DNA of 39,177 nt, taken from Candidatus Poribacteria bacterium. Lineage in GTDB: Bacteria > Poribacteria > WGA-4E > WGA-3G. Of this stretch, positions 16,451 to 38,817 are shown piece by piece; the stretch's first letter is position 1; each line of letters opens with the position of its first letter. The notes beneath the pieces were generated by a model. It had not been told where the DNA came from. It saw only the letters and a program-made list of their open reading frames with translations, and searched no databases. A program made the position numbers and the translations under genes. The stretch spans positions 1 to 39,177 of the forward strand of contig JAAXHO010000085.1 in assembly GCA_012270795.1 (NCBI GenBank). The letters are read 5' to 3'.

Positions 16451-16592
16451 TGTGACATTAGTTTATCACGCTTTTAGTTGTTTATCAACAAAGTTTTGAA
16501 CCCAATATTTTCAGAAACTAAAGCCATTCAATTGCCACGAAGTATCTTTGTTGGAAGACTTTGCAACAATAAAATACCAATAGATTATACAT

Positions 16593-31372: not shown

Positions 31373-32233
31373 TTACAAAGATTGTTCAAGTCTGTAAAAT
31401 TTGACTGCATTATTATAGAATAGATCGTTTTTTTCTTTCGATGAACATCCTTCAACAGCATCATACAAGGTCTGCACCCAACGCGAATAATCAGAGGCAA
31501 GCGTTGAAACAGGCCAATCACTGCCATAAACAACGCGATCAAATCCGAAACATTCTATGACATGCTCTATATATGGCTGTAGATCAATCGGTTTCCACGA
31601 CTCATGGTCTGCTTCTGTCACCAATCCAGACATCTTGCAGAATACATTTGGAAAAGCAGCAAGCGTCTTTATCTCCTGCCTCCACGGTTCAAAAAGTTGA
31701 TTCTTGATATCTGGTTTGCCAATATGATCCAATATAAATTGAACATGTGGACACTGTTCAACAAGTTGTATGGCGTTTGCAAGTTGTGGGTGAAAAATAC
31801 AGATATCAAAACTCAACCCGTATTGTGCAAGTGTTTTAATACCTTCTACAAACTTAGGTTGTATACAAAAATCAACACTTTCACCTTGAATTAGTCGGCG
31901 AATACCTTTCACAAGTTTTTCCTCAGCAAGTTTCTCAACAAATGCTGCCACCTGCCGACCTTCTTCAAGTGGTGCCCAAGCCACAATACCACGAAGGCGC
32001 GGTTCCACTGCTGCAAGTGATGTTACCCAGTCAGTCTCTTTCAAACCATCATCAGGATGTGTGTCACATTGCACAAAAACAAAGGAGGTTATTTCCAAGT
32101 TTTCGGTTGCAGCGGCATAGTCGTTCAATAGATATTGCCTGTTTAACGCAGGAACCTGCTTCAGCCAAGGATACCTAAGGTGTTTGGGATGCCATAGATG
32201 AACATGCGTATCAACAATCGGGATTCTTTCCAT
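31373..32233 (-). CDS. COG3618 amidohydrolase/lactonase (fuconolactonase-like)
   Basis: A 286-residue TIM-barrel hydrolase of the amidohydrolase superfamily. Metal ligands are His10 and His12 (VDTHVHLWHP), with His170 (ILDHIGKPD) and Asp239 (VYGSDWPVS) completing the site. The length matches COG3618 enzymes, which open sugar lactones such as L-fucono-1,5-lactone or 2-pyrone dicarboxylate lactone. No signal peptide. It opens toward the long regulatory gap at 32234 and converges on kdgK. A lactone from sugar oxidation, perhaps by a Gfo/Idh/MocA-type enzyme, is a likely substrate; this is inference. Confidence 0.92.
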   Translation of the reverse strand: MERIPIVDTHVHLWHPKHLRYPWLKQVPALNRQYLLNDYAAATENLEITSFVFVQCDTHPDDGLKETDWVTSLAAVEPRLRGIVAWAPLEEGRQVAAFVEKLAEEKLVKGIRRLIQGESVDFCIQPKFVEGIKTLAQYGLSFDICIFHPQLANAIQLVEQCPHVQFILDHIGKPDIKNQLFEPWRQEIKTLAAFPNVFCKMSGLVTEADHESWKPIDLQPYIEHVIECFGFDRVVYGSDWPVSTLASDYSRWVQTLYDAVEGCSSKEKNDLFYNNAVKFYRLEQSL

Positions 32234-32349
32234 TGGTTGTCTCCATGTGGCTAAGGATTAACACTATTTTAGTCATTCTATAGAAATTTGTCAAATATTT
32301 TAAACTGGGTGGGCAAACAGACATTCAATTGTCCAGTTTCGTTGTTGTT

Positions 32350-32406
32350 GGAGGGGTTTCTAACCCCGATTTGAAATACACAGCAGCAATCGGGTTAGAC
32401 CCACCC
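32350..32406. repeat. GGAGGGG palindrome with a matching inverted arm
   Basis: GGAGGGGTTTCTAACCCCGATTT (split as arm and centre, 32350-32372) is the second copy of the 6694 repeat. A further arm, AATCGGGTTAGACCC (32388-32402), can pair with the first one. The rest of 32234-32440 shows no gene. Confidence 0.65.
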
Positions 32407-32445
32407 AAAAAAAGTAAAATAAACCACAACAAACGTTAAAAATAC

Positions 32446-32474
32446 TTGACACATATCATTATATGTGTTATAAT
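32446..32474 (+). promoter_or_regulatory. Consensus promoter with an 8-bp operator-like palindrome
   Basis: TTGACA at 32446-32451, a 17-base spacer, and TATAAT at 32469-32474, both perfect consensus. ACACATAT (32449-32456) and ATATGTGT (32461-32468) form a perfect inverted repeat with a 4-base centre between the boxes. A strong promoter with a built-in repressor site is the simple reading. No normal gene follows before 33064. Confidence 0.8.
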
Positions 32475-32480
32475 ATACTT

Positions 32481-32650
32481 CACACATTAAATTTATGATA
32501 AAATATTATGACCACATCAATAAAACTGACACATTCTGCTCATAAAGGACAAGAAATTTCAAAATGCTACACTTTTCAAAAAAATATTTTTTCAATTCAC
32601 AAGAAATTGCCTGTAAACCCTTTCTACTAGTGGGTTTACAGGCAATTTAA
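32481..32650 (+). ncRNA. Candidate small regulatory RNA or short-ORF transcript
   Basis: A transcript from the consensus promoter would begin near 32481 and run into a perfect 17-bp hairpin (32604-32620 with 32632-32648, 11-base loop). Possible short ORFs begin at 32495 (16 codons) and 32508 (40 codons, ending TAG at 32628 inside the loop), but neither has a ribosome site. No T-run follows the stem. The boundaries are inferred from sequence only. Confidence 0.45.
32604..32648. repeat. 17-bp perfect hairpin
   Basis: The arms are AAATTGCCTGTAAACCC and GGGTTTACAGGCAATTT, with loop TTTCTACTAGT. It is the longest perfect stem noticed in this window. Confidence 0.85.
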
Positions 32651-32653
32651 AAT

Positions 32654-32690
32654 GTTACCAAAAAAACGAAAAAAGTGTCCATTTGGTAAC
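32654..32690. repeat. GTTACCAAA/TTTGGTAAC inverted repeat
   Basis: Perfect 9-bp arms (32654-32662 and 32682-32690) with a 19-base A-rich loop. It begins 5 bases after the 17-bp hairpin. Confidence 0.6.
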
Positions 32691-32740
32691 GTTTTAAGGA
32701 CGAATCGCCCGATAAAAACGTGAAATAAACACAACTTTCG

Positions 32741-32933
32741 TAGAGTGTGTAAAGTTTTTGCTTTTGTCTGAACCAGGATTATCAGATTTCCAGGATTACC
32801 GCATCAATAGTTTTTTTGACACAGATTATGCCAACTTATGAATGGTGCGTCCTACCTCAAACTCATCGTCCTGGTAATCTGGTAATCCTGAAAATCCTGT
32901 TTCAGACAGAAGCAAAAACCTTACACACCCGTA
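32741..32933. repeat. MITE-like element with ~60-bp imperfect inverted arms
   Basis: The left arm (32741-32800) begins GAGTGTGTAAAGTTTTTGC and continues TGTCTGAACCAGGATTATCA. The right arm (32873-32933) is its imperfect complement, ending AGCAAAAACCTTACACACCC. About 72 bases lie between. The ends match those of the element at 3186-3380 (GGGTGTGTAAAG followed by a TTTTGGC-like stretch). Both elements are about 195 bp, so they probably belong to one family. Confidence 0.7.
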
Positions 32934-32946
32934 CCCTCAAAAATGG

Positions 32947-32976
32947 TTGACACATTTATCAATGCCATTGTATAAT
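32947..32976 (+). promoter_or_regulatory. Promoter of the LamG gene
   Basis: TTGACA at 32947-32952, an 18-base spacer, and TATAAT at 32971-32976, 87 bases ahead of the ATG at 33064. Confidence 0.75.
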
Positions 32977-33063: not shown

Positions 33064-33855
33064 ATGTCTAATAAAATGATATTATGCATTACTTTATGTA
33101 TTTTCTGTTTTTTTCCGATTGTGTCTATTGTAAATGCTCAATTCCCCACAGACGGCGTTGTGGGTTATTGGTCATTTGATGCTGGAACAATAAATGGTAA
33201 TACCGTTCAAGATGTATTAGGGTAAAACAATGGTAAATTAGACGGCAGCCCGAAAGTTGTGTCAGGGAAAGTTGGCAATGCTCTTGAATTTAACGGAGAG
33301 AACGGTATTCAAATTTCAGGCACCAACGCATTGGATTTCAACGGGGCAGAAGAGATGACTGTCGCTGCATGGGTCAATGCAGCAAACGAAAGTCCAATGA
33401 TAGGCGTTGTTGGTGGATGTTGCGGAACCATAGTTGCACAGCGAGACATGAATGGATGGGCATTACGTTTTGATGGCAGAAACCCCAATACTGAAATGAC
33501 ACTTATTGTTCAACCACAATGGCAAGGCAACAAAGTACTCGGCGTACCACCGTTCGCAAAAAACACTTGGCATCACATGGTTGGCATCGTAAATAAAAAT
33601 GAACTCCTGCTCTATATTGATGGGAAATTTGCTGTTGATGCAGCATACAACGGCCCTATGTCTACAAATGGCACTGCAACAGAAATCGGTCATGCATCTG
33701 ATGGAGGTTTTATCGGCATCATTGACGAAGTAGTGATATACAACAGAGCTGTATCAGGTGGAGAAGCCAAACAACTTTATCAAGCGCAGGGTTTGCCAGT
33801 TAAACCACAAGAAAAACTTACAACACGTTGGGGATACATAAAAGCAGCATTTTAA
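33064..33855 (+). pseudogene. Secreted LamG/concanavalin-like lectin-fold protein interrupted by one stop codon
   Basis: The frame from ATG 33064 encodes a signal peptide (MILCITLCIFCFFPIV, ending VNAQ), then GVVGYWSFDAG and DVLG, followed by a TAA at 33223 (codon 54) and then NNGKLDG in the same frame. Without that one stop the protein would have 263 residues with one LamG domain (ALEFNGENGIQI, MTVAAWVN, LLLYIDGKFAV, IGIIDEVVIYNRA). Promoter, ribosome site (AGGAGAGG) and signal peptide are intact, so the stop looks recent, an error, or read through. An internal GTG/ATG restart would lack export. The fold binds sugars or matrix proteins; it is followed by polysaccharide export genes. Confidence 0.85.
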
Positions 33856-38788: not shown

Positions 38789-38817
38789 TTGACATTTTTG
38801 GAAACCAATAATATAAT
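38789..38817 (+). promoter_or_regulatory. Consensus promoter near the right end
   Basis: TTGACA at 38789-38794, a 17-base spacer, and TATAAT at 38812-38817, both perfect. It precedes a structured leader and a small ORF at 38865. Confidence 0.75.

What the first reader, a model, noticed from the sequence alone, without database searches (positions are those of the whole stretch)
32446..32690. Perfect promoter with built-in operator feeding a 17-bp hairpin and no normal gene
Both promoter boxes are perfect with a 17-base spacer, an 8-bp palindrome lies between them, and about 120 bases later comes a 17-bp perfect stem, then a 9-bp one. Such a tight arrangement suggests a regulated small RNA or leader, not decayed DNA.
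Basis: seen in the sequence. Interest (0 to 1): 0.6.

Follow-up and report, generated by a model that had tools for sequence, protein, structure and literature searches.

The report
Orphan gene-control region spread by transposon
The strong promoter and hairpins are a copied, gene-less control region of a DUF2280-like gene that was multiplied across a Candidatus Poribacteria genome inside a small transposon-like repeat; the whole family suggests a protein that binds its own leader, each gene copy with its own matching DNA code.

Summary
The sequence features are real: a perfect TTGACA-17-TATAAT promoter, a 17-bp stem and a second near-perfect stem. The reading as a regulated small RNA is not supported. 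The stretch is one copy of a dispersed repeat (22 hits in its genome; Candidatus Poribacteria). Complete sister copies are about 570-580 bp with 18-bp terminal inverted repeats; the repeat family makes 10-bp target duplications: a MITE. The window copy has lost both intact ends to other repeats. The MITE core is homologous to the promoter-to-Shine-Dalgarno leader of a multicopy gene X (DUF2280-like, two related genera only) but carries no X reading frame. The only X copy in this genome is broken. In X leaders across species the stem next to the ribosome site varies in sequence but stays palindromic (21 two-sided changes, no one-sided change), direct copies of the box recur at about 11 or 21 bp, and X residue 21 (Arg or not) matches the last base of the box in 30 of 30 genes. 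Best reading: an orphan operator array of an autoregulating DNA-binding protein, spread by a MITE. The promoter hexamers are unchanged in all 18 promoter-bearing copies compared; the 17-bp stem is unique to the window copy. Binding by X is inferred, not shown.

The parts
32316..32405 (.). Remnant of a sister MITE of the same TIR family (AACAGACATTCAATTGTC + CAGTTTCGTTGTTGTTGGAGGGGTTTCTAACCCC..), lying where the intact left end of MITE-A should be
   Evidence: TIR consensus CAGAGGCATTCAATTGTC with 3 mismatches at 32316; the following sequence resembles the start of 131-bp sister MITEs, not the left end of MITE-A; the G013 ortholog keeps the intact left end
32407..32745 (+). Core of the dispersed element (MITE-A): promoter plus gene-less leader
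   Evidence: 22 hits in own genome, homologous limits 32407-32745 in sister copies; 71% identical over 307 bp to the leader of intact gene X in G013
32446..32474 (+). Consensus sigma-70-type promoter TTGACA-17-TATAAT, extended -10
   Evidence: 0 of 168 differences in the two hexamers among 14 copies (0 of 216 among 18), 6.8% (11%) elsewhere
32566..32572 (+). Upstream box (GCTACAC; GTTACAC in most copies)
   Evidence: same place as the upstream box of X leaders, whose core matches that of the downstream palindrome in several paralogs
32604..32648 (+). 17-bp perfect hairpin; only the inner and the outermost pairs are kept in sister copies
32654..32690 (+). Box array: GTTACC 32654-32659, GTGTCC 32675-32680 (21 bp on), inverted GGTAAC 32685-32690; proposed orphan operator of protein X
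   Evidence: the same array precedes the start codon of X genes, with changing but matched box sequences
32696..32714 (+). Relic of the X ribosome-binding site (AAGGA) and of its start codon (ATA where X has ATG)
   Evidence: pairwise alignment with the intact G013 leader AAGGAGGAATCAACCCATG
32745..32930 (.). Another inverted-repeat element (GTGTGTAAAGTTTTTGCTTTTGTCTG .. CAGACAGAAGCAAAAACCTTACACAC) in place of the right end of MITE-A
   Evidence: sequence; sister copies continue here towards a right TIR

Best explanation
The stretch is an orphan copy of the promoter and leader of a DUF2280-like gene (X), carried and multiplied by a MITE with TIR CAGAGGCATTCAATTGTC. In intact loci the promoter transcribes a leader of about 200 nt that holds one upstream box, a conserved AACCC..GGGTT hairpin and a palindromic box array just before the ribosome-binding site of X. 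X most likely binds these boxes as a helix-turn-helix protein and limits its own expression. In the window the reading frame of X is gone, the boxes remain, and both MITE ends were later overwritten by other repeats. Shown: homology, copy number, TIRs, covariation, phasing. Inferred: that X binds the boxes, that binding represses, and that the promoter is active.
For: Dispersed repeat: 22 hits in own genome, 13 in the nearest relative. Full copies have TIRs (326 TIR matches in the genome against 2 for the reversed pattern). TIR pairs have 10-bp target duplications (60% flank identity at length 10, shuffled mean 28%, maximum 40%); one full MITE-A copy, L055 of 580 bp, matches at 9 of 10. The relative G001 has no element at this locus, while G013 keeps a left and a right end on two contigs. 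The core matches the leader of intact X, E 3e-29, ending near its start codon. X occurs in 42 of 59 genomes of the family, in 2 of 4 genera, and meets the DUF2280 cut-off in two members. Palindromes next to the ribosome site: 21 cells changed on both sides, none on one side; 0 of 500 shuffles. Direct boxes at 10-12 or 20-22 bp in 12 of 28 leaders, shuffled mean 1.6, maximum 6. Residue 21 is Arg in all 14 genes whose box ends in C and never in the 16 whose box ends in A, with at least two switches nested in the Arg clade. Promoter hexamers invariant.
Against: No binding, expression or repression data. The boxes lie downstream of the promoter, not over it, which is less usual for a repressor. 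The AlphaFold model of X is all-helical but matches no solved structure. Box labels for the residue-21 comparison were assigned by eye from the palindromes, and the palindromes were chosen for being palindromic. No transposase for the TIR was found (PF01609 absent from the genome).
Confidence: 0.72

Rival explanations
1. A regulated small RNA or stand-alone structured RNA transcribed from about 32481.
For: Perfect promoter and strong folding; several full MITE-A copies end in a CACTG..CAGTG hairpin followed by a T-run near the right TIR, so complete copies could make a discrete RNA (sequence).
Against: The window copy has lost that end and no terminator was found before 33145. The 17-bp stem is unique to it. 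The homologous region is the leader of a protein gene. The scan did not call a terminator at the right end of sister copy L036. No Rfam family.
Confidence: 0.1
2. The X leader acts at the RNA level: the right arm of the palindrome pairs either with the adjacent arm or with the upstream box, switching transcription or translation of X (attenuator).
For: The upstream box matches the left arm in several paralogs, the palindrome abuts the ribosome site, and the arms covary.
Against: No one-sided (G-U) change beside 21 two-sided ones. Extra direct copies at 11, 21 and 31 bp fit DNA helical turns. The match of one protein residue to one base points to protein-DNA contact.
Confidence: 0.2
3. The copy is a working mobile promoter for the downstream LamG-domain gene.
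For: Promoter hexamers invariant. The called downstream ORF runs the same way in 27 of 29 copies; in tandem contexts the non-TIR leaders all point into the next gene, several 33-135 bp from its start.
Against: In the window another repeat and a second perfect promoter (32947) lie between, and the gene is broken by TAA at 33223. Most TIR copies lie in divergent intergenic regions, where co-direction carries no information.
Confidence: 0.15
4. Inert MITE debris, its promoter no longer of use.
For: Both ends are eroded, and the only X gene of the genome is a pseudogene.
Against: 0 of 168 changes in the hexamers, where about 11 would be expected at the background rate of 6.8%.
Confidence: 0.2

Closest known systems
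MITEs carrying promoters or other regulatory motifs (for example Correia elements of Neisseria; PMC2229807)
   Same: Short, non-autonomous, TIR and target duplication, many intergenic copies, carry regulatory DNA
   Different: The cargo here is a recognisable promoter-operator-leader of one gene family, still matched to its intact parent gene in sister genomes
Autoregulated operators of iteron-type plasmid initiators (own knowledge)
   Same: Direct repeats about two helical turns apart plus an inverted repeat next to the gene of the proposed binding protein
   Different: Chromosomal, no replication gene; X is DUF2280-like, the boxes lie in the leader, and the box sequence differs between paralogs
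DUF2280 (Pfam PF10045; the one paper held that names it concerns Acinetobacter baumannii ATCC 19606 mobile elements and prophage, PMC7760358)
   Same: The N-terminal 37 or so residues match the start of the profile above the cut-off in two members
   Different: X proteins are about 240 aa (profile 103), multicopy, dispersed and preceded by the box leader; no phage record matched one X protein
Mobile or propagating promoters in prokaryotes (terms found in PMC9208149, listing only)
   Same: A promoter is copied across the genome
   Different: Here the carrier, the parent gene and a box code are identified

Membership tests
MITE | terminal inverted repeats | tested here: met
   18-bp TIRs in sister copies; the window copy itself keeps no intact TIR of its own
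MITE | target-site duplication | tested here: met
   10-bp duplications in the TIR family, 9 of 10 in one full MITE-A copy
MITE | short, no transposase gene | tested here: met
   568-580 bp complete copies, too short for a transposase; sequence shown
MITE | related autonomous element with the same TIRs | tested here: inconclusive
   PF01609 absent from the genome; other transposase families not searched
DUF2280 (for gene X) | score over the Pfam cut-off | tested here: met
   28.0 and 24.3 bits against 24 in L124 and L126; 22.5 in two others; 15 of 20 members at E<=0.01
DUF2280 (for gene X) | match over the whole domain | tested here: not met
   best stretches cover only profile positions 3-43, or 22-91 in L118's protein
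Autoregulated operator | binding of the gene product to the boxes | not testable with these tools
   only indirect evidence: covariation, phasing, residue-21 match
Small RNA gene | promoter plus terminator and conserved RNA structure | tested here: not met
   no terminator in the window copy, stem not conserved

The most novel reading that the evidence does not exclude
A lineage-specific family of DUF2280-like autoregulators in Poribacteria in which each paralog has its own diversified operator code, with one residue of the helix-turn-helix (position 21) reading one base of the box, and whose promoter-operator regions, with or without the first codons of the gene, have repeatedly been turned into high-copy mobile elements.
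Probability: 0.45. Interest if true: 0.65.

Novelty: new variant of a known kind. Interest (0 to 1): 0.5.

Why it matters
It turns an isolated promoter and hairpin into a natural experiment: a gene family of unknown function whose paralogs carry different, internally matched box sets, so that the DNA specificity of a DUF2280-like protein could be read by a direct binding test. It also shows promoter-operator DNA of one gene being spread as a repeat, with the promoter kept intact in all copies compared.

Tried and rejected
Spacer palindrome as the operator: not conserved. Conserved 17-bp RNA stem: only in the window copy. A short reading frame from the ATG at 32508: indels of one or two bases between copies break its frame (alignment). 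A CRISPR-Cas accessory role of X: the X genes of G016, G005 and G012 lie beside cas genes, but those of other genomes have no common neighbour. Structure search of X: no match in PDB. DDE_Tnp_1 transposase (PF01609) as the mobiliser: none in the genome. X in phage records: no match with one member.

Full report
OBSERVATION. The second stem is longer than stated: 16 positions with one G-T pair. Exact TTGACA-N16-18-TATAAT occurs 3 times in the window against 0.03 in shuffles, and the folded transcript has z = -5.3. No gene of 60 aa or more is listed between the amidohydrolase (31373-32233, minus strand; Amidohydro_2) and the LamG-like gene at 33064, which is itself interrupted by TAA at 33223 where the G013 ortholog reads Gln.

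IT IS A DISPERSED REPEAT. The stretch 32420-32700 has 22 matches in its own genome, eight others at 84-89% identity over nearly the full length, and 13 in the closest relative G013. A pattern scan names Candidatus Poribacteria isolate jk18x9bins.65 as a carrier of the same sequence; that this is the G013 genome is an inference from two contig lengths that both share. Aligned with their flanks, sister copies extend to about 570-580 bp and end in CAGAGGCATTCAATTGTC and its complement. The 18-mer occurs 326 times in the genome at up to 3 mismatches, against 2 for the reversed control. Among 22 TIR pairs, flanking identity peaks at 10 bp (60%, shuffled mean 28%, maximum 40%); the full MITE-A copy L055 has ATTTCGCAGT/ATTTCGCAGC. 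The family is therefore MITE-like. At the window locus, G013 retains the intact left end on one contig and a right TIR on another, and G001 has a short gap without any element. In the window, the left end is taken by a remnant of a sister MITE and the right end by another inverted-repeat element at 32745-32930.

WHERE THE CORE COMES FROM. Part of the core (about 32560-32697) also occurs alone. In G016, G005 and G012 it lies directly before an open reading frame of 212-228 aa with a Shine-Dalgarno sequence between. This gene X is multicopy (21 profile matches, some of them partial, in the single-contig genome G009) and present in 42 of 59 genomes of the family but only in 2 of 4 genera. Its N terminus meets the DUF2280 cut-off in two members. 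Most X genes carry the same type of leader: promoter, upstream box, AACCC..GGGTT hairpin, palindromic array, Shine-Dalgarno; a few (L181, L178, L163) lack the array. The MITE core aligns with the leader of the intact X gene of G013 over 307 bp (71%, E 3e-29) and ends near the start codon, which reads ATA in the MITE. In the window's own genome the only X locus has four in-frame stops. In G002, G008, G009 and G014, repeats made of the X leader plus the first 20-50 codons are abundant; in G008 some are bounded by the same TIRs on both sides, in G014 at least on the right. Capture or internal deletion of X units thus happened more than once; which of the two is open.

HOW IT PROBABLY WORKS. Three results point to a DNA-binding protein acting on its own leader. 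First, 16 distinct palindromes just before X show 21 two-sided changes and no one-sided change in 9 pairs; sliding the partners abolishes this. An RNA stem would be expected to show some G-U steps. The palindromes were selected for symmetry, so the absence of one-sided standard pairs is the informative part. Second, direct copies of the box recur at 10-12, 20-22 (and 31) bp, that is, one, two or three helical turns: 12 of 28 non-redundant leaders against a shuffled mean of 1.6 and maximum of 6; the spacing classes were chosen after looking. One solo leader (L064) has a 21-bp unit iterated. Third, X residue 21, at the turn between the first two predicted helices, is Arg in all 14 genes whose box ends in C and Leu, Ile, Asn or Pro in all 16 whose box ends in A; two of the switches are nested inside the Arg clade of a tree built without the N terminus. 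Box labels were assigned by eye. The proposal that X binds its array and limits its own expression is inference.

THE PROMOTER. In 14 MITE-A copies the hexamers show 0 differences in 168 cells, against 6.8% in the rest and 9.7% in the spacer; adding four divergent copies gives 0 of 216 against 11%. This is the strongest sign that the promoter is used. Copies lie upstream of genes: the next called ORF is co-directional in 27 of 29. For TIR copies this mostly reflects divergent intergenic regions; the solo leaders in tandem context all point into the next gene. One solo leader sits 33-50 bp before the same 780-aa gene in G000 and G013 with two different box sets (L043, L064).

AGAINST THE SMALL-RNA READING. 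No terminator in the window copy, no Rfam family, 17-bp stem not conserved. The perfect 17-bp stem looks like a copy-specific perfection of an imperfect one, since the other copies have several mismatched pairs in its middle.

LIMITS. No expression or binding data; MAG assemblies break at these repeats; the mobilising transposase is unknown; the fold of X matches nothing solved. The literature search was by words only and found a single paper naming DUF2280.

Noticed in passing
window 33064-33855: LamG-like gene interrupted by an in-frame TAA at 33223; the G013 ortholog is intact (263 aa).
   Followed up: partly
window 32947-32976 and 38789-38817: Two further exact TTGACA/TATAAT promoters, the first directly before the LamG-like gene.
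   Followed up: no
window 32745-32930: Inverted-repeat element with ends GTGTGTAAAGTTTTTGCTTTTGTCTG; the same motif recurs near many loci in related genomes.
   Followed up: no
window 16519-16536: Further possible remnant of the CAGAGGCATTCAATTGTC terminal repeat (4 mismatches).
   Followed up: no
L066 3150-3833; also L070, L069, L155: Gene X lies inside CRISPR-Cas loci (Cas3 upstream; Cas10 or Cas4-Cas1 downstream) in three species.
   Followed up: partly
L123/L139: Tandem X genes at one locus with different boxes (GTTACC and GTTACA) and different residues 21 (Arg, Leu) to match.
   Followed up: partly
L146-L149 (G009): Whole X units (promoter, leader, gene) were recently multiplied, 97-99% identical at different loci.
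   Followed up: partly
L064: 21-bp unit ATGTTTTCAAAAAAACGAAAA iterated in a leader before a gene other than X.
   Followed up: no
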